Source: Solirubrobacteraceae bacterium (lineage in GTDB: Bacteria; Actinomycetota; Thermoleophilia; Solirubrobacterales; Solirubrobacteraceae). From it: 64,000 nt of DNA. The position numbers were made by a program, and so were the translations under genes. Numbering within the stretch: position 1 is the first letter of the stretch; each line of letters opens with the position of its first letter. Shown piece by piece: positions 46,362-56,145 of the stretch. The notes beneath the pieces were generated by a model. The model saw only the letters and a program-made list of their open reading frames with translations. It was not told the origin of the DNA and did not search any database. The DNA lies in contig JANWIP010000020.1 in NCBI GenBank assembly GCA_025449845.1, positions 62,001 to 126,000 of the forward strand, written 5' to 3'.

Positions 46362-46445
46362 CTTTACAAGCGCGGCGCGTTCGGTGCGCACATGCACGTG
46401 CAGCTGATCAACGACGGCCCCGTGACGCTGCTGCTGGACGCTTGA
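46362..46445 (+). pseudogene. dtd: C-terminal remnant of D-aminoacyl-tRNA deacylase
   Basis: A short frame after the diguanylate cyclase reads LYKRGAFGAHMHVQLINDGP and then VTLLLDA before a TGA at 46443. This closely matches the conserved C-terminus of DTD (FGAHM, NDGPVTLLL). No upstream part of the gene is present and there is no start. It overlaps the end of the convergent large secreted-protein gene. It appears to be a leftover from a deletion or insertion. Confidence 0.65.
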
Positions 46446-49400
46446 CGCGGGCCTTTGCCTTGCTTCTTGCTTGTGCCTTGCCTGCCCTTGGCTTGCCGGC
46501 CTTGGGGCAGCCGGCGAGCGAGATCTTGGTGCTCTGTTTGATGACGGCCCCGTTCTGCCCGGTGAGGGTCGTTGGCATGACGAGCTTCTGCCCGCAGAGG
46601 GACTTGACGGTGCTCGTAAGCACGCTGTGCTTGCCGCGGGGCAGCATCAGCTCAAAGGAGTTGATGGGCGCGTCGGGCACGCTCGCGAAGGTGCTGCTGG
46701 TGATGCTCTTGACGATCTTGGTGTTGCCGGTGAGGTTGATGCGTACCCCCTCGCCCTGCAGCACGATGACGAGGTCGGGAAACGCGGCGCCGCCGTGGGA
46801 TACGAGATAGGCGGGACCCGTCAAGGTGACAGGGAGAATGGGCGTGGTGGCCCTGACGATCCCCACAAGCGAGTTGGGATCGCAGGTGGCAGGATTGAGC
46901 GCGAAGACCGCCGCCGGACAGGCATGCTGGAGCGTAGTTAGTCTCGCCGGCAGCTGCTTGGGCAGTGTGACGGCCACCCCGCCGAAGTTCGCCTGACCTG
47001 TGCCCGAGGTCACCTTCACGTCGAGGCTCGCGCCCAGAGCCTTTGACACGGCTCCACCCGCGGAAGCCTTGAAGGTGGGCTTGAACGGCAGGCCATTGCA
47101 GCCTTCGGCCGCGACCGGCGCCGTCAGGTTGACGGAGGCGCCCTGCGTTGAATCCACGGTGGTGGCGATCTGCTTGATCGCACAGTTGGTGGGGTTGAAG
47201 AAGAATTCCTTGCGGTTGACCTGCACATTGACCATCTGCAGGTGCAGCGGCACGCCGTCCTTGACCTGCGGCAGCGGATCGCTGGTGACAGTGACAGCGC
47301 TGGTTTCGGGGTTGATGTCGATGCGCGAGCGCACGACGACGTTGCCGAGGTTGAAGGGACCGGCGACGGCAGGCACCACGATGGAGAATCCAAACGGCGC
47401 ACCGTTGTAGGGCCCGGTTAGATAGACCTTGCCGGTGACCCCCAGTGGCTGAGAACCCGAGCCGGCCCTGACGAGAGTGGTGCCGACGAGACTTTCTTCA
47501 CCGCAGGTGCCCAGCGAGGCCTGTGGTTCTGCGCAGAGCGGCACCTTGGAGAGCATTCCCAGCAGCCCCGGGGGCAGCTTGACCTGCAGCCGCGAGAGAT
47601 CCTGCTGGCGATCCCCGCGGGTGAGGGTGAAGGAGAAGGTGCTGAAGTGACCGGCGGCCGCATTGGTGACACCGGCTTCGAGGGAAGGCCTGAAGGGAGG
47701 CGTGCCCGGACAAGGACCGTTGTTGCCGTCCCAGTCGACATTGAACGACGCCGGCACGAGCGCGTCGGGCGTGATCGGGGCGCTCCAGGGCTTGAGGTCG
47801 GCGCTGGCGAGCGCTTCGCCGCACTGGCGCGGGTTGGCCACAGGGGCGCGTCCGCCGCCCTTGATGTTGAGCGTCACTTCGCTGAAAGGGAGCTGCGGAT
47901 TTTCTGTGAACCTAGCGGTGAGCTGGCCGGTAGCGGGATCGGCCGAGACGCTGCCCGCGAGCTTGACGACCGCGCCTGACCCTTCGGCTTCCAGATACAG
48001 CCCAAACAGGCGCCCTTCGCTGGCATCCGTGGCCGTGCACCCAGGCTGCCCCGGCCCGCCGCACTGCGGCTGCGCCACATATACATGCCCTTCCAGTGGG
48101 CTTTCCAGCACCGGAGTCTTGACCTCTACTGTCCCGATCTGCGATGCCTGCGGACAGTGTCCGAGCGTGAGATGGGTCATGCCATCCGCGCCGATCGCTT
48201 CTCCTTCGCCGGCTTCGGTCGGAGTGCCGCCTCCGGTAGGCATGTCGATGCCGTTGGGGCCCGTTGCGGGGCAGCCCACCAGGCCATCGCCACCACCCGG
48301 AGATATCGTCATGCCCGGCGGCAGCGCCATGGTCACGTCCTTGAGCTGGGGCACCGCCAGCACGGGGAACTGCGAGGGATTCTGCGGCACCTTGATCTTG
48401 ACCTGAAGGCCGGTGGGCGCTTCGGCCTCGCTGACTTCGGGGTGCAACTCGACGGTGGGCGCGAACTGCAGCAGTTCGCAGCCGTCTATTTTTGGATACG
48501 CCACTGTTTCGGCGGATGTCCAATGCCCAGGGGCGCTCCAGGGGTCAGCTTCGACCTTGGTCGTCAGTGGGCCGGCCTGGCAGTTGCTGGGGTTGGTGAA
48601 GAAAGCCTTGGCGCCGCTTGGGTTGCCGTCTTCGGTATTGGGGTCGCCGAAGAACGTCAGCTCCGCCCCCTCAAAGTTGATGGCCCGCGGAACGCCGGGG
48701 CTGGCGACGCGCAGACCGTAGCCAGCTCGTGTGCGTACCACACTCACATACAACGGAGCCTCATACCCAAAGACCTTGAAGCCAAACTGGGCAGGATAGC
48801 CTCTATCCGGGACCATGTTATAAACCGAAGACACCACCGCCTGATTTGCCGGTTCGAGGGAGCTGACGACACCGCTTTCGGTAAAGAGCAGAGCAGTACC
48901 AATGCGACTGGCAGGTGGACATTCACTCTTTGTCTCCCCGCCCTGGTTGAGCTGGCGCTCTGTACACTGGGCTGCCGCGGTTGGATCGCCTAGAAAACCA
49001 AGCGGCGGATAGACCGCGATATCCTTTGCGGGATCGACATCAGCAAATGAAAGCGGACCGCCCGATCTGGTTTCAATATTAGTATTTAGGTTCACTGTCG
49101 CCGTCACGCCATACGGGTGATTGTCCGCCTGCGCCTCCAGCTGACCTTCTATGCCATGCACCGCAAAGCCCAGGCCAGCGATCCCGAACCCAACGGATAG
49201 ACCTTCTGCGGTATTGGGCGTAGTCAAAGGCTCGGCCGTAAAGGCCGGCGCCGCACCACCACCCGAAACCCTGGCCGAATTTGTAATGGTGCCAACAGCT
49301 GACGTGACTTCCACCTTTAGGACCACAACCAACGTATCGCCCGGCCTAACCGTTTCGTTATAGCTACAGGTAGTATCAGTCGTGTCACATGACTGCGGAT

Positions 49401-49722
49401 AACCTTCGCTTTCAACATTAATCACCTGCATATTGCGGGGCCTTAGCCCCTGCGGAAGAGTGTCGGTGATAAGCACCGGCCCTTCCGTCGATCTGCCCCC
49501 AACATTAGTGAGCGTCACGATATACTGATCACAAATAGAATAGCCATTACTTGCGCATTTTGTATTGTCTTCGACGGAAAAGTTGGTTGGATGCGCAATC
49601 GATGCTACTTCCCATGCAGGAGCGGCTGAGACAGCCCCGGCGTTGGCCGGCGAGGGCTCCGCAGCTGTAAGTATTATTGCTATTGCGCAAAAAAGGAACT
49701 CGGCTATCACCCTTACCCGCAT
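46408..49722 (-). CDS. Very large secreted protein with DUF11-like domain
   Basis: A 1104-residue protein with a signal peptide (about residues 1-28, ending near NAG). A DUF11-like beta domain lies at about 55-165 (YIVTLTNVGGRSTEGPVLIT). Several repeated beta-rich segments containing paired Cys follow, with the phrase CPPASRIGTALL and related CP-xx-SxIGT forms recurring. The tail is strongly basic (KAGKPRAGKAQARSKAKA). Such proteins come in families in Solirubrobacterales and are of unknown function, probably cell-surface. It follows the PD40 gene by 3 bases. GC falls along it towards the 5' end. Confidence 0.75.
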   Translation of the reverse strand: MRVRVIAEFLFCAIAIILTAAEPSPANAGAVSAAPAWEVASIAHPTNFSVEDNTKCASNGYSICDQYIVTLTNVGGRSTEGPVLITDTLPQGLRPRNMQVINVESEGYPQSCDTTDTTCSYNETVRPGDTLVVVLKVEVTSAVGTITNSARVSGGGAAPAFTAEPLTTPNTAEGLSVGFGIAGLGFAVHGIEGQLEAQADNHPYGVTATVNLNTNIETRSGGPLSFADVDPAKDIAVYPPLGFLGDPTAAAQCTERQLNQGGETKSECPPASRIGTALLFTESGVVSSLEPANQAVVSSVYNMVPDRGYPAQFGFKVFGYEAPLYVSVVRTRAGYGLRVASPGVPRAINFEGAELTFFGDPNTEDGNPSGAKAFFTNPSNCQAGPLTTKVEADPWSAPGHWTSAETVAYPKIDGCELLQFAPTVELHPEVSEAEAPTGLQVKIKVPQNPSQFPVLAVPQLKDVTMALPPGMTISPGGGDGLVGCPATGPNGIDMPTGGGTPTEAGEGEAIGADGMTHLTLGHCPQASQIGTVEVKTPVLESPLEGHVYVAQPQCGGPGQPGCTATDASEGRLFGLYLEAEGSGAVVKLAGSVSADPATGQLTARFTENPQLPFSEVTLNIKGGGRAPVANPRQCGEALASADLKPWSAPITPDALVPASFNVDWDGNNGPCPGTPPFRPSLEAGVTNAAAGHFSTFSFTLTRGDRQQDLSRLQVKLPPGLLGMLSKVPLCAEPQASLGTCGEESLVGTTLVRAGSGSQPLGVTGKVYLTGPYNGAPFGFSIVVPAVAGPFNLGNVVVRSRIDINPETSAVTVTSDPLPQVKDGVPLHLQMVNVQVNRKEFFFNPTNCAIKQIATTVDSTQGASVNLTAPVAAEGCNGLPFKPTFKASAGGAVSKALGASLDVKVTSGTGQANFGGVAVTLPKQLPARLTTLQHACPAAVFALNPATCDPNSLVGIVRATTPILPVTLTGPAYLVSHGGAAFPDLVIVLQGEGVRINLTGNTKIVKSITSSTFASVPDAPINSFELMLPRGKHSVLTSTVKSLCGQKLVMPTTLTGQNGAVIKQSTKISLAGCPKAGKPRAGKAQARSKAKARVKRPAAASRGRR

Positions 49723-49725
49723 AGC

Positions 49726-51891
49726 CTACCTATGCCTAACGGTCTTTTTGCCATGCCGATGCTTTGGCTGTGCATGCGCACGCGTCCTGTGCCTAGACTT
49801 CTTCTTCCCTCTAACGGTCTTCCTTTTGGGCGCAGCTGGCTTCTGCTTGGCGCCAACGACATCCGGCCCTGGGGGCGCTTCTCCTATTGCGGGCGCAGTC
49901 GCTGGCGGGAGAGGCAGCCCGCTGGTCGGACCCTGGCAGGAGTCGGCTGCACACTGTGCAAGAGTCGGCGAAGGCACAAATCCACCATTAATGCGCGCAT
50001 CATATATATCCGCTAATGTATCCGTATCCTGAGGCACAAGTTGGTCGGTAGTCGTGAAAAAAACGTCTTGCCCTGATCCATCGGTCCCTATTAGTTCGAC
50101 AGCAGGACTGCCCGTTGTGAGAGCTACATCGTGACCGTCAGAGATCAAGCCTACCCTCCCGTCGTGATATTCGTATATGTTATTAACACCTTCTAATGCC
50201 TGTGGCGTGAGTGCATCTTCGCTCGAGAAGAACACACGTGAGCCATCGGCTGATACCGCCAAGTGTGTTGAGCGCTGAATGTGCGGATCACGCTCGTAGC
50301 CCTGGATTGGGATCGTGGCACGGTATCTGGCCGAATGTCCGTTTTCGTTAAAGCCCCCCTGACCTTGCGATACCCGGACAAGTGTTTCCGTTTGTGAGTC
50401 GTACTCAAACACCTGTCCAGCTTCCTGTCGACCATTCTGGTCGGGCGTCAGGTTAGCGACACTCTGAAATACCAAGTAGCGTCCGCCGGGCGTGGCCTGC
50501 GCCGGATGGGACTCCTGTAATGTCCAGTCACTTTCATCGGCCGACGAAAGTGTGGTAACGAACGCCATATGTTCGCTACCTATTTCTTCACATCCAGACG
50601 CCGGCCCGGCACATTTAGTGGTCCAGACATACAGGTTAGGAGCCCCATCGATCGGGGCCTCCCCTTCCTTATTAGCGCCCGTCAGCCTCGCTTGTGAAAC
50701 GAAGTAAACATGTGACCCATCCTCAGACACCCGCACAACACCCAACACACGTCCAGCGGTACCGTCACCAGCGGAAACGAGCGTTACCCGTTTGCCTTCA
50801 GCAGCTTCGAAATCATATCTATATAGATAAGGACCTACGCCTATTGCATCGGGCAGCAGCGGCTGTTCAGTCGTAAAGAGCACCGTTGACCCGCTGAGTG
50901 ATGCGCCGCGAAACTGCGCATCCATTCTATTGGTCGTCTGGCATTCTGTACAAGCGATGGTTGAAGGCTCAGATATGGACACGGTCCGTGACGCTCCAAG
51001 ACGCGCATAAATTTCGTTGACCGATGGACCAAACGCGTGGCACACGCTTGAGGCGCTTGCCGTAAAAAAGACCGTAGCGCCGCTTGCAGACACGGCATTA
51101 TAGGTGTTTCCTTCGGGAAAACTTCCCAAATATGTACCACAATCACTTATCAAGTGGGCTGTCGGGACACTGGCGGGCATGCCGATATTGGTTATCCCAA
51201 CTAGCCGGGGTTCCGAGTTGCCCAGCCCTTCGTATTCATAAAGTGACGGTAGACGCCCACCCGCGGTAGTATCGCCCGGCCATAGATGGTTTACTTCTCC
51301 TCCACCAGGAGACCGGTCTGTGTACAGCACATGCGAGAGATCATCAGACGCTCCCTGGAACTCAAGCACCTCTCCCCCCGCATTCGGTGGTTCCCCGGGG
51401 CCAACGAGCTTCAGCGCTCCCTCCGGCGGCCCGCGGTAAATGCCTTCCAAGAGGGGCTGGTCAGGTGTGTGCGCAGACCAAAGACTGCTCTGGAAGTCCG
51501 GGCTGATTGTCTGAACAGCGTAAAGTGAGAACTCAGAATAGGGGGCGTCGAGCGGGGTCGAAGCCCATCCCGTGCTTGTCCGCATAAACTTGTAGGACTG
51601 GCCCAGTGCTCCTGTATCTTCGGTACCTGAGAAACTTCCAAAAGATTCACCGAGCACTTGGGTGCCTTCTTCGGAAACCCCATCAGCCGCAGCCGTAAAG
51701 CCCTCCTTGTACGACGGAGAAACCAGCTCATAGCTGCGGCAGTCCGGGAGATACGCTCGAAATCCCAAGGTGGAGCCGTTTGGACACGGACCAAGAGGGA
51801 CGTCGCCCGCAACTGCCGACGTAGTCACTGGGATTAGTATTGCGGCTGCAAACATCGCAGTTGCACATAGCCTTTTCAAAAAGGGACGCAA
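49726..51891 (-). CDS. Secreted PD40/TolB-like beta-propeller protein
   Basis: A 721-residue protein with a signal peptide (about 1-29). The body contains repeated propeller-like strands: VLYTDRSPGGGEVNHLW, SEDGSHVYFVSQARL, SADGSRVFFSSEDAL and DGSGQDVFFTTTDQL. The N-terminus of the mature part (CPNGSTLGFRAYLPDCRSYE) has a Cys pair. The last about 45 residues are rich in Lys, Arg and His. Codon use is visibly more A/T than in neighbouring genes. With the 3-base gap to the DUF11-like gene it forms an operon. Ligand unknown. Confidence 0.75.
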   Translation of the reverse strand: MRPFLKRLCATAMFAAAILIPVTTSAVAGDVPLGPCPNGSTLGFRAYLPDCRSYELVSPSYKEGFTAAADGVSEEGTQVLGESFGSFSGTEDTGALGQSYKFMRTSTGWASTPLDAPYSEFSLYAVQTISPDFQSSLWSAHTPDQPLLEGIYRGPPEGALKLVGPGEPPNAGGEVLEFQGASDDLSHVLYTDRSPGGGEVNHLWPGDTTAGGRLPSLYEYEGLGNSEPRLVGITNIGMPASVPTAHLISDCGTYLGSFPEGNTYNAVSASGATVFFTASASSVCHAFGPSVNEIYARLGASRTVSISEPSTIACTECQTTNRMDAQFRGASLSGSTVLFTTEQPLLPDAIGVGPYLYRYDFEAAEGKRVTLVSAGDGTAGRVLGVVRVSEDGSHVYFVSQARLTGANKEGEAPIDGAPNLYVWTTKCAGPASGCEEIGSEHMAFVTTLSSADESDWTLQESHPAQATPGGRYLVFQSVANLTPDQNGRQEAGQVFEYDSQTETLVRVSQGQGGFNENGHSARYRATIPIQGYERDPHIQRSTHLAVSADGSRVFFSSEDALTPQALEGVNNIYEYHDGRVGLISDGHDVALTTGSPAVELIGTDGSGQDVFFTTTDQLVPQDTDTLADIYDARINGGFVPSPTLAQCAADSCQGPTSGLPLPPATAPAIGEAPPGPDVVGAKQKPAAPKRKTVRGKKKSRHRTRAHAQPKHRHGKKTVRHR

Positions 51892-52018
51892 GCAACAATC
51901 GCCTCCCCTTGGGCGCGGGATGTGAATGTAATATCAGCCTGCACGACTCCATTGAGGGTAAAGGACGAAAGTGGCTGGAGCAAGCTGTGTCTCTGACCCA
52001 GCCATACGCCGCCGTTGG

Positions 52019-52068
52019 GGCTGGGCGGGAAGCTGGTGCTTTCGCATCGCCAGCTTTTCCGCCCAGCC
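52019..52068. terminator. Long hairpin between two secreted-protein genes
   Basis: GGCTGGGCGGGAAGCTGG, a 13-base loop, and CCAGCTTTTCCGCCCAGCC pair nearly completely (about 17-18 bp with one bulge). It lies downstream of the gene ending at 52100 and upstream of the PD40 gene, both on the minus strand. No T-run follows on either strand, so it may be a terminator, an mRNA end protector or a repeat element. Confidence 0.5.
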
Positions 52069-52099
52069 GATCGGCTAGGTTGCTACGTAGTTTGCGTGG

Positions 52100-52843
52100 C
52101 TATGTACTCCATACTCCGAATACTTTGTTATCACTCAGCCTTGCCCCATATCCTGCGATAAAGTGCGCTTCGTTGGCGCCTAAAGCGAGCGATACGCCCA
52201 GTTCGTCAGGTTGTACTTTTTGTTCGTTTTCAAACAAAAATACCTTGGTGATAGGCGTTTCGGGGAACACCAATTGACCTTCTTGTACTTCCGATTCTTT
52301 TGGCAATAGTTCGGCAGCCACAGTACCTTTTACGGGAAATGGATTGCCCGATTTAATGGGACAAGTTCCTCCTGGACCATCAAGGAAGGATATGTTGGTG
52401 AAAGTAGAGCCTTGTTGCGGTTCGAATAGCTCCGCGAATTTGGATTGATTGCCCGTGAAAGTTACGAGGTGTGATTTTGTTTGATTAGTGGTAATCGGTT
52501 CCTGTGGTTTGCACTTCGTCCCGTTACCTGCCACAACAGAGGTGCACGATGTGAATGCCAGGCGACCTTTGGCCTGGCCCGGTTTTTGGGGACCACTGCC
52601 TTCGATAGCCGCGCCTTCCGAAACACTGTTCCGGCATTCGACTCTCACGGCCATCAAAGAGACCGTCGAAGTGAGAACGGCTATGCCTTTCAACTGGAGT
52701 TTCAGTTGTTGTGTGCCTTGCGCGAACTTGCCTCCGTTCACGTGCCAGAACGGACCACCTGTAGCCGACGCAGTCGACGCACCGATCCCACTGACAACGA
52801 ATAGAGCAAGCACGCCAAGCAAGGCGAACCTCATTTTGAACAT
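52100..52843 (-). CDS. Secreted protein of unknown function
   Basis: A 247-residue protein with a signal peptide ending near ASA (MFKMRFALLGVLALFVVSGI at the start). The mature part is beta-rich with two Cys pairs, seen in FTSCTSVVAGNGTKCKPQEP. I do not recognise a domain. ATG 52843 is chosen over the track start at 52996 because GAAAGGAAG lies about 9 bases upstream and the signal peptide begins there. GC is low for this genome: I counted 28 of 60 G+C in one line of the gene. Probably surface or secreted, like its neighbours. Confidence 0.7.
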   Translation of the reverse strand: MFKMRFALLGVLALFVVSGIGASTASATGGPFWHVNGGKFAQGTQQLKLQLKGIAVLTSTVSLMAVRVECRNSVSEGAAIEGSGPQKPGQAKGRLAFTSCTSVVAGNGTKCKPQEPITTNQTKSHLVTFTGNQSKFAELFEPQQGSTFTNISFLDGPGGTCPIKSGNPFPVKGTVAAELLPKESEVQEGQLVFPETPITKVFLFENEQKVQPDELGVSLALGANEAHFIAGYGARLSDNKVFGVWST

Positions 52844-54140: not shown

Positions 54141-54905
54141 ATGAGTACGACGCCAGCAATGCCCGCAACCAAACCGCCCTTTTCCAAGGGCCAGGTCAAT
54201 CGCGCTGGCAAGCTGCTCCTCGATGCGCGAAACACGACGCGACAGGAAGGCACCGATCGAGCGAGCGAGAAGTTCGGTGGCGCGAAGATCGTCAAGGCGT
54301 CCGATGCCGTGGCGTGGTGGCGGACGCTCCATGGCAGACCGCTGTCCAGCGTCGCCGCGAATCTGCGCTACCACGTAAGCAGAGAGGGCGGCCAGGTTGG
54401 TGGCCAGATCGAGGTCGCGCAGCGTTTGAAGCGGCACGACACGATGATCGACAAGCTTTCGCGCGAGCCTACGATGCAGGTCACGCAGATGCAGGACATT
54501 GGTGGCGTCCGCGCCGTGCTGCCGAGCTTGCGTCACGTCTACGCCCTGACTCGTCGCCTGCGCAAGTCATGGACGGTCATCAAAGTCAGGGATTACATCG
54601 CCGAGCCGAAGACCTCGGGATACCGAGCGCTACATCTGATCGTGAAACGCAGTGGCTATCCGGTTGAGGTTCAGCTCCGCACCGTCCGGCAGCACGCATG
54701 GGCCAACCTGGTCGAGGAGGACGGCAGAGAGATGGGAGTCGGATTGAAGTTCGGAGTCGGGGCAGGCGAGATCCATGCCTACTACCTGGCCCTCTCCGAG
54801 GTCCTCGCGCTCATCGACCAGGGCGAGTGTCCACCCGACGAGTTGCAGGCCGCCATCATGGAGCGCTATGCCATTATCAAAGACATCCTGCCCAGCGACG
54901 AGTAA
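54141..54905 (+). CDS. RelA/SpoT-domain nucleotide synthetase (toxSAS-like candidate)
   Basis: A 254-residue protein. The synthetase domain runs from about residue 90 to 215: RLKRHDTMIDKL (ATP side), MQDIGGVRAVL (metal Asp), EPKTSGYRALHLIV (the loop Tyr that stacks on the acceptor) and YPVEVQLRTVRQHAWANLVE (catalytic Glu region). There is no HD hydrolase, TGS or ACT domain, so it is a small alarmone synthetase type. On a mobile island beside a small ORF, it resembles toxSAS toxins that make (pp)pApp or pyrophosphorylate tRNA. The residues needed for catalysis look intact. ATG 54141 lies 25 bases from the att repeat; ATG 54159 is an alternative. Confidence 0.85.
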   Translation: MSTTPAMPATKPPFSKGQVNRAGKLLLDARNTTRQEGTDRASEKFGGAKIVKASDAVAWWRTLHGRPLSSVAANLRYHVSREGGQVGGQIEVAQRLKRHDTMIDKLSREPTMQVTQMQDIGGVRAVLPSLRHVYALTRRLRKSWTVIKVRDYIAEPKTSGYRALHLIVKRSGYPVEVQLRTVRQHAWANLVEEDGREMGVGLKFGVGAGEIHAYYLALSEVLALIDQGECPPDELQAAIMERYAIIKDILPSDE

Positions 54906-54907
54906 AC

Positions 54908-55228
54908 ATGAACCCACCCATGAGCCCCGCCGACATCAAGCACTTCCTCATCATCTACGACATCAAGGCCCGCCACGCCGACGTTCGTCCTCTCGGCACG
55001 GACTACGACGCAGCACAGGCGGCATACGATCAAGTCGAGCGTGAAACTCGCGACCGCTCCGACCTCGACATCGTTCTGCTCAGCGCCGATTCACTGGCGA
55101 CGATAAAGCGCACCCACTCCAGCTACTTTCACTCCCGCAAGTCCTTCGAGGCGCTTTTACCCGCCGGGGTCCGTGCCGCTCGCACTCGCCAACCACGGCG
55201 GACCCTCACGGGCCACGGCAGCGTGTAG
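54908..55228 (+). CDS. Small partner protein of the RelA/SpoT-domain gene
   Basis: A 106-residue protein I do not recognise. It begins MNPPMSPADIKHFLIIYDIK and has an alpha/beta N-terminal half, DYDAAQAAYDQVERETRD, LDIVLLSADSLATIKRTHSSY and a basic tail (AARTRQPRRT). It starts 2 bases after the RelA/SpoT stop, so the two are one transcript. In toxSAS systems the antitoxin is a neighbouring small gene, which makes this the candidate neutraliser. That role is inferred from arrangement only. Confidence 0.65.
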   Translation: MNPPMSPADIKHFLIIYDIKARHADVRPLGTDYDAAQAAYDQVERETRDRSDLDIVLLSADSLATIKRTHSSYFHSRKSFEALLPAGVRAARTRQPRRTLTGHGSV

Positions 55229-55401
55229 CGACTCAGCCGGGGGCGATTATGAGCCCTTGTCGGAGCGTTTGATTGGGCAGCAATGGGCGGTGGATTCATC
55301 CACCAGCCGCCAGTGCCCAAACGATCTCCCCGTCGGCCGCCGCCCCGTGGTCGCCTTCGTGGGGGCGTAGATTGCGCGGTATCCTGACAGGAAAATAACG
55401 T

Positions 55402-55800
55402 TCAGGTTGCCACCGCCTCCTGTAGCGTGACGGTGTGTCCGAGCGCTTCGAGCTGGGTGACGAGGCGTTTGGTTGTGCGTTCGGGGTCGCGTTTGCGGAA
55501 GTAGTCGCCGCCGAGGTCGTTGTAGAGCTCGCCGGTGCTGAGCATGTGCCAGCAGGCGCACAGGATGGAGTGCTTGACAGCGCCGAGCGCCTTCTTGTGG
55601 CCGCGGCGGGGCTTCAGGCGGGCGTATTGCGCTGCGAGGTAGACGTCTTTGGTGCGGATCGCGGCCAGCGCGGACTCCTCGAGTGTCCAGTCGAGCCACT
55701 TGGAGCCCTTGCGGGTCTTTCCCGAGCGGCGTCTGCCGGCTGACTGGTGCAAACGACGCGGGGCAGGTGAGGCCCGATGACCAACAGGGCACCGAAGGGC
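55402..55800 (-). pseudogene. IS110-family transposase, decayed C-terminal fragment
   Basis: One frame reads QSAGRRRSGKTRKGSKWLDW, then DVYLAAQYARLKPRRGHKKA, and ends ALGHTVTLQEAVAT. This is the C-terminal Transposase_20 region of IS110 enzymes. Just upstream the expected sequence continues in another frame (WSSGLTCPAS), so there is at least one frameshift. The N-terminal RuvC-like DEDD half is missing. It is a relic lying between the RelA/SpoT pair and tRNA-Arg. Confidence 0.75.
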
Positions 55801-56073
55801 GAAGTGGTCCGCAACCCGACGTGCGGCGCGGCATCTGGCAGCCGCACACAACAGAAGCGCCACCTGAGGCGCCGCAAGACCTCGGCTTTCGCGAGTTCGT
55901 CTCCGCTTGGTTCGAGGCGATCCGTGGCGAGCGATCGGTGGCGACTGCGGCTGCTTCGAGGGCGCCCATCTGGCAGTAGATGGCAGTGGGCTCGAATTGA
56001 CGCCCCCGAGCCGAGGGTCGCGGCGAACGCCTGAGACAGAGAATGGCTTGATTGCAGGCCACTTCGCCCCCCA

Positions 56074-56145
56074 TGCCCCCGCCAGGAGTCGAACCTGGAT
56101 CTACCGCTTAGGAGGCGGTCGTCTTATCCATTGGACTACGAGGGC
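56074..56145 (-). tRNA. tRNA-Arg (anticodon CCU)
   Basis: A 72-base cloverleaf on the minus strand: acceptor GCCCTCG/CGGGGGC, D stem GTCC/AGAC with G-U-type pairing, anticodon stem ACCGC/GCGGT with loop CTCCTAA (anticodon CCU), T stem CCAGG/CCTGG with loop TTCGACT, discriminator A. CCA is not encoded. Its 3' end is the integration site of the mini-island to its left. Confidence 0.95.

What the first reader, a model, noticed from the sequence alone, without database searches (positions are those of the whole stretch)
46408..52843. Lower-GC block of three secreted proteins with basic tails
The DUF11-like, PD40 and third secreted genes are visibly richer in A/T than flanking genes, most in the 5' parts. 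The two large ones end in strongly basic low-complexity tails. These may be surface proteins of foreign or fast-evolving origin, with tails that bind acidic wall polymers.
Basis: partly seen in the sequence, partly recalled or inferred. Interest (0 to 1): 0.5.

Follow-up and report, generated by a model that had tools for sequence, protein, structure and literature searches.

The report
Multiplied surface-protein pair in soil bacteria
The odd AT-rich block is not foreign DNA: it is one of about 30 copies of a two-protein surface cassette that fills nearly 6% of this uncultured soil bacterium's genome, apparently a diversified outer-coat repertoire for which I found no published description.

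Summary
GC falls to 0.52-0.58 at 48.5-53 kb (genome genes 0.67). Both large proteins end in strongly basic tails. The genome (3.27 Mb, Solirubrobacterales) holds 30 copies of this gene pair plus three lone copies of the larger gene, 5.8% of its bases. P2 is an exported TolB/PD40-like propeller. P1 is a new family of four tandem repeats with 16 invariant cysteines. Genes in a pair are same-strand, in the same order, and touch or overlap in most copies. The P1 and P2 trees agree, so pairs duplicated as units. Nineteen of 30 pairs carry an operonic TetR-MarR regulator, whose tree does not follow the pairs'. Copies form species-specific clades: this genome and permafrost MAG palsa_744 expanded separately. 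Small secreted genes beside pairs are AT-rich genome-wide, so low GC is a gene-family trait. Tails meet a basic criterion in 57/60 paired genes versus 1/149 background genes; a Cys-pair version recurs on four unrelated exported proteins. Most likely: wall-held, diversified surface complexes, a monoderm analogue in kind of PE/PPE or SusCD repertoires. Ligands, wall binding and complex formation are inferred, not shown.

The parts
46408..49722 (-). P1: exported 1104-aa protein. Signal peptide, variable DUF11-like N-domain (about 37-165), four-repeat Cys4 core (about 178-1075), basic tail (about 1073-1104)
   Evidence: Not in Pfam or NCBIfam. 33 copies in the genome.
46411..46506 (-). Basic low-complexity C-terminal tail of P1 (PKAGKPRAGKAQARSKAKARVKRPAAASRGRR)
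   Evidence: 14 K/R, 0 D/E in last 40 residues; low pLDDT at the C-terminus.
49726..51891 (-). P2: exported 721-aa TolB/PD40-like beta-propeller protein with a disordered basic tail
   Evidence: 30 copies, each directly upstream of a P1.
49729..49929 (-). Disordered basic tail of P2 (residues about 655-721)
   Evidence: pLDDT < 50 over nearly all of 655-716; 45% K/R, 0 D/E in last 40 residues.
52100..52843 (-). P3: small exported protein (247 aa), lowest GC of the block; ten matches in the genome, seven at the five pairs of the window's clade
   Evidence: P3-P2-P1 order also in G007:C94.

Best explanation
The block is one copy of a multiplied cell-surface operon. SHOWN: about 30 copies per genome of two co-oriented genes, mostly touching or overlapping. 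P2 is an exported TolB/PD40-like beta-propeller. P1 is an exported chain of four homologous Cys4 beta-sandwich repeats with an interchangeable N-terminal Ig-like cap. Both end in basic tails. The two genes duplicate together, stay under purifying selection and expand separately in different species. Nineteen of 30 copies carry a TetR-MarR regulator in the same operon. INFERRED: P1 and P2 of one operon form a cognate complex. The basic tails hold it electrostatically in the anionic wall. The P1 repeats act as a stalk and the propeller plus the variable N-terminal domains as the recognition end. Each copy recognises a different outside partner (polymer, particle, cell or nutrient) and is switched by its local regulator where it has one. 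Low GC reflects these fast-evolving, weakly codon-selected genes, not recent import.
For: 30 pairs plus 3 lone P1 in a 3.27-Mb genome; 189.5 kb = 5.8% of it. Gaps of -4 to +5 nt in 25 of 30 pairs, 12 of them -4. P1 and P2 trees congruent (Mantel r 0.74, 0 of 2000 permutations reach it). Pairing holds in other Solirubrobacterales MAGs (44 of 64 loci with enough upstream DNA). 16 cysteines invariant in 51/51 sequences, four per repeat; repeats detected by profile comparison. The same repeats alternate up to about 32 times in open frames of about 5,000-7,200 aa in another family of the order, as expected of a stalk. AlphaFold: P1 all beta, pLDDT 86; P2 matches TolB/S9 propellers, Foldseek prob 1.00. 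TetR-MarR on the same strand in 19/30 loci (15 after P1, 4 before P2), none in 8 background loci. Basic tails 57/60 vs 1/149. Cys-pair basic tail on P1, P2, a cupredoxin-like and an Fn3 protein. Independent expansions; dN/dS 0.10-0.46.
Against: No ligand, complex or wall binding is demonstrated. 11 of 30 pairs, the window copy included, lack the adjacent regulator, and the regulator tree does not follow the pair tree (r 0.04), so 'one switch per pair' is not strict. TetR-MarR genes also occur away from pairs in relatives. Some P1 copies contain stops. A few loci have P1 before P2 (L125; L215). Foldseek matches for P1 are only generic multi-Ig proteins with TM about 0.1. The exact genome identity is unknown, and MAG assembly could distort copy number.
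Confidence: 0.5

Rival explanations
1. The block is a recently imported AT-rich genomic island.
For: GC3 is more than 5 SD below background for P2 and P3. A tRNA-Arg lies at 56074-56145, and a fragment reading like an IS110-type transposase lies at 55402-55863 (my reading). The nearest neighbour's orthologs in relatives have other flanks.
Against: Family restricted to the order in the class sample; nested among own-genome paralogs; same low GC in dispersed small secreted genes; P3-P2-P1 order in a second species; no mobile gene recurs beside the copies; no flanking direct repeats of note; no viral-contig relatives.
Confidence: 0.05
2. The cassettes are a variation or decoy system: many alternative coats, expressed a few at a time to escape phages, predators or competitors.
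For: Large species-specific repertoires, local regulators shuffled among cassettes, mosaic divergence suggesting recombination between copies (L086/L087: P1 dS 0.67 but P2 dS 2.95).
Against: No silent cassettes, invertible elements or recombinases recur at the loci; closest copies have dS about 0.6 or more, so no rapid switching library; dN/dS gives no sign of positive selection.
Confidence: 0.2
3. Sus-like nutrient capture: each pair binds a different polymer and hands it to transporters, with its regulator sensing the product.
For: Surface pair plus local regulator repeated tens of times resembles PULs; B. thetaiotaomicron has 101 SusC/D pairs, many with linked regulators (PMC3878776).
Against: No glycosidase or transporter family recurs beside the pairs; no TonB-type porin; regulators do not co-evolve with pairs.
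Confidence: 0.2
4. The basic tails are not anchors but drift: GC-rich codons for K, R and A accumulate in an unconstrained C-terminus.
For: Low complexity and variable sequence; disordered in the P2 model and low-confidence in P1.
Against: D/E almost absent in 60 paired genes, of which 57 reach the basic-tail criterion against 1/149 background genes. A Cys-pair version is conserved and portable across four unrelated exported proteins. Lone P1 copies of the basal type lack the tail.
Confidence: 0.12

Closest known systems
PE/PPE families of mycobacteria (PMC1660551, PMC2519833)
   Same: Actinobacterial, exported, two different proteins encoded in operon pairs, multiplied to several percent of the genome, expanded by lineage, partners inferred to co-evolve
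   Different: No PE or PPE domain in any protein scanned; Sec-type signal peptides; beta-propeller and Cys-repeat folds instead of helical hairpins; TetR-MarR regulators in many operons; basic tails
SusC/SusD pairs and PULs of Bacteroides (PMC3878776)
   Same: Tens of repeated surface-protein pairs, many with a linked regulator
   Different: No TonB-dependent porin, no linked hydrolases, different regulator class
TolB / PD40 (WD40-like) propellers
   Same: P2 fold matches TolB and S9-peptidase propellers; some family members pass the PD40 cut-off
   Different: No peptidase domain in the scanned copies; extra NHL and Fn3 domains in long versions; basic tail; multiplied and paired. Presence of Tol/Pal partners was not searched
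Wall-bound proteins held by cationic regions, e.g. Lactobacillus S-layer proteins attached to teichoic acids (PMC2571106, PMC11181022; abstracts only)
   Same: Idea of electrostatic retention on anionic wall polymers
   Different: Different folds; binding here is inferred only

Membership tests
DUF11 | Significant match to the Pfam model | tested here: not met
   P1: no Pfam family at E <= 1. Only an N-terminal stretch resembles DUF11 by eye; the lone P1 forms lack it.
PD40 / TolB-like propeller | PD40 repeats above curated cut-off | tested here: inconclusive
   Window P2 15.5 bits vs 20.9; relatives L078 21.6 and L150 29.2 pass.
PD40 / TolB-like propeller | Beta-propeller fold | tested here: met
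   AlphaFold pLDDT 78; Foldseek prob 1.00 to TolB 7mx5 and S9 propellers, though TM by query only 0.2-0.35.
PE/PPE | PE or PPE domain | tested here: not met
   No such Pfam or NCBIfam match.
PE/PPE | Type VII secretion dependence | not tested
   N-terminal Sec-type signal peptides make it unlikely (sequence reading).
SusC/SusD | TonB-dependent porin plus SusD lipoprotein | tested here: not met
   No matching Pfam family in any copy scanned; folds differ.
Horizontally acquired island | Composition differs from host genes | tested here: met
Horizontally acquired island | Phylogeny points outside the lineage | tested here: not met
Wall-anchored surface protein | Export signal | tested here: met
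   Hydrophobic N-termini in the window genes and nearly all full-length copies, by hydropathy and reading, not a trained predictor.
Wall-anchored surface protein | Binding to the wall | not testable with these tools
   Needs fractionation or binding assay.

The most novel reading that the evidence does not exclude
A previously undescribed surface-repertoire system of Solirubrobacterales: tens of propeller-plus-Cys4-stalk complexes, each recognising a different partner. Many sit in an operon with a TetR-MarR switch that is exchanged among cassettes, and they are held in the wall by a portable C-terminal basic (Cys-pair) tag that is also used by unrelated exported proteins.
Probability: 0.3. Interest if true: 0.75.

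Novelty: new variant of a known kind. Interest (0 to 1): 0.55.

Why it matters
Almost 6% of a small (3.3-Mb) genome of an uncultured soil lineage is spent on one unannotated two-protein system, so it is likely important to how these bacteria meet their surroundings. It gives a concrete family (invariant 16-Cys core), a testable partner assignment, candidate regulators and a candidate wall-retention tag. It also shows that low GC in such genes can be a family trait rather than a sign of gene transfer.

Tried and rejected
Foreign island: rejected on phylogeny and on equal composition of dispersed genes. Phage origin: no viral-contig relatives. Defence system: no PADLOC match. AT-rich silencing by Lsr2: no Lsr2 found in the genome, so not pursued. 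Recent gene conversion as the cause of P1's GC gradient: four-fold sites are near saturation on average, although GC3 and 4-fold identity rise together toward the 3' end and one close pair looks mosaic; left open. Positive selection: not seen. Empty-site test at the window locus: the nearest neighbour's orthologs have other flanks, so uninformative about insertion. Solved homologs by sequence: none. Literature searches for Solirubrobacterales surface paralogs, Thermoleophilia gene family expansion and Palsa-744: nothing relevant.

Full report
WHAT IS THERE. The stated coordinates are exactly three minus-strand genes: P3 (52100-52843), P2 (49726-51891) and P1 (46408-49722), in that order in the direction of transcription. 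GC in 1-kb windows falls to 0.52-0.58 between 48.5 and 53 kb. Against 78 background genes of the same genome (GC3 0.820 +/- 0.052), P2 (0.535) and P3 (0.50) are more than five standard deviations low. P1 (0.719) is low mainly toward its 5' end (0.53, 0.73, 0.80, 0.82 by quarters). Both large proteins end in basic tails; P3 does not.

A MULTIPLIED FAMILY. The window lies in G000, a 3.27-Mb, 93%-complete genome. Searching it gives about 30 relatives of P2, 33 of P1 and ten matches to P3. After fetching every locus, 30 P2-P1 pairs and three lone P1 genes remain. P2 is always directly upstream of P1 on the same strand. The gap is -4 to +5 nt in 25 of 30, and exactly -4 in 12, an arrangement typical of translational coupling. 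P1 and P2 together take 189.5 kb, 5.8% of the genome.

CO-DUPLICATION. Trees of the 30 P1 and 30 P2 proteins agree; distances correlate with r = 0.74 and no permutation of 2000 reaches it. Four-fold sites are near saturation on average, so most duplications are old. dN/dS among closest copies is 0.10-0.46 (purifying) wherever it could be computed, and P2 accumulates more amino-acid change than P1.

REGULATORS. Nineteen of 30 pair loci contain a TetR_N plus MarR_2 regulator on the same strand, 15 right after P1 and 4 right before P2; none is seen in eight background loci. Genome-wide only about three further close relatives lie elsewhere, all with stops in the frame. The regulator tree is unrelated to the pair tree (r = 0.04), so regulators appear to have been exchanged among cassettes. 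In other MAGs 16 of 38 paired loci over 9 kb have one, against 0 of 17 unpaired loci. The window copy has none. It belongs to a five-locus clade that carries the small exported P3 instead. Another clade carries a second small exported family.

P1 ANATOMY. P1 matches no Pfam or NCBIfam family. Its core consists of four divergent tandem repeats (profile comparison 87-99% probability between all pairs), each with four cysteines invariant in 51 of 51 sequences, 16 in all. The model is almost all beta with pLDDT 86. Solved-structure matches are only generic multi-Ig proteins. In another family of the same order the second and third repeat types alternate up to about 32 times in single open frames of about 5,000-7,200 residues, which argues for a stalk-like structural role. 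The N-terminal DUF11-like domain is variable and optional.

P2 ANATOMY. P2 is a propeller resembling TolB and S9-peptidase propellers (Foldseek probability 1.00, modest TM), with a disordered basic tail. Longer copies add NHL and Fn3-like domains.

TAILS. Fifty-seven of 60 paired genes have K/R >= 25% and D/E <= 5% in their last 40 residues, against 1 of 149 background genes. A structured variant, TRAQKLAKALKACxK...KRxxCExxARKxYGPK, ends both P1 and P2 copies. In the same genome it also ends a cupredoxin-like and an Fn3-repeat exported protein. A portable C-terminal module on unrelated exported folds is what a retention or sorting tag would look like. In 149 genomes of the class only this genome and one sister-genus genome matched, so its range is narrow at that sensitivity.

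ORIGIN. In a 399-genome class sample all matches to P1 lie in the same order. Named relatives are nearly all Solirubrobacterales MAGs, several from peat or permafrost; one is labelled Phenylobacterium and may be mis-binned. Copy number within the genus runs from 2 to 36 matches. The second most expanded genome, G007, is palsa_744, because two of its contigs have the same lengths as PLYX01000132.1 and PLYX01000240.1. Copies form own-genome clades, so expansions were independent; the basal-type lone P1 genes form the deepest branches. Small exported genes scattered through the genome have GC 0.47-0.55 wherever they lie, and P3-P2-P1 order recurs in palsa_744. Low GC is therefore a trait of these gene families. 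Why it arises is open; GC3 rises with conservation along P1.

MECHANISM. Shown: export signals, pairing, co-duplication, purifying selection, linked regulators in most but not all copies, and near-universal basic tails. Inferred: cognate complexes, electrostatic wall retention, and different recognition by each copy. The closest parallels in kind are PE/PPE pairs (about 10% of M. tuberculosis coding capacity, PMC1660551; cognate pairing by operon and co-evolution, PMC2519833) and SusC/D pairs (101 in B. thetaiotaomicron, PMC3878776). Membership in either was tested by domain content and not met.

LIMITS. Functional claims rest on sequence and models. Gene starts are by rule. Background statistics come from samples. 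The MAG may collapse or miss copies. Several P1 hits contain stop codons in the matched frame and may be pseudogenes, assembly errors or simply matches running past the true stop.

Noticed in passing
L226+L227 (G042:C7:240001-275000) and L228 (G039:C7:10001-30000): Open frames of 7,099 and 4,990 residues within the fetched stretches (7,223 and 5,628 aa) built of alternating copies of the P1 repeats (u2-u3-u2-u3...), about 32 in the first, in another family of the order: apparent giant surface proteins.
   Followed up: partly
L197 1495-2187 (-) and L207 1-1629 (+): A cupredoxin-like and an Fn3-repeat exported protein end in the same Cys-pair basic module as P1 and P2 copies; no Pfam model covers the module.
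   Followed up: partly
L086, L087, L092, L094, L095: A second small exported, low-GC protein family (about 230 aa) lies beside the pairs of one clade, divergent from the pair or otherwise adjacent, in the place that P3 takes in the window clade.
   Followed up: partly
L215 (G002:C36:1-20000), L214, L212: Runs of several long (about 430-580 aa) regulators matching the TetR profile side by side, in L215 flanking a P1-P2 pair in reversed order (P1 before P2).
   Followed up: no
window 54141-56145: RelA/SpoT-domain gene (54141-54905), a fragment reading like an IS110-type transposase (55402-55863) and a tRNA-Arg (56074-56145): possibly a small decayed insertion next to the block.
   Followed up: no
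L218 (G007:C21): In palsa_744 one operon carries P2-P1 followed by two further P2-type genes and the TetR-MarR regulator, i.e. multi-propeller versions exist.
   Followed up: no
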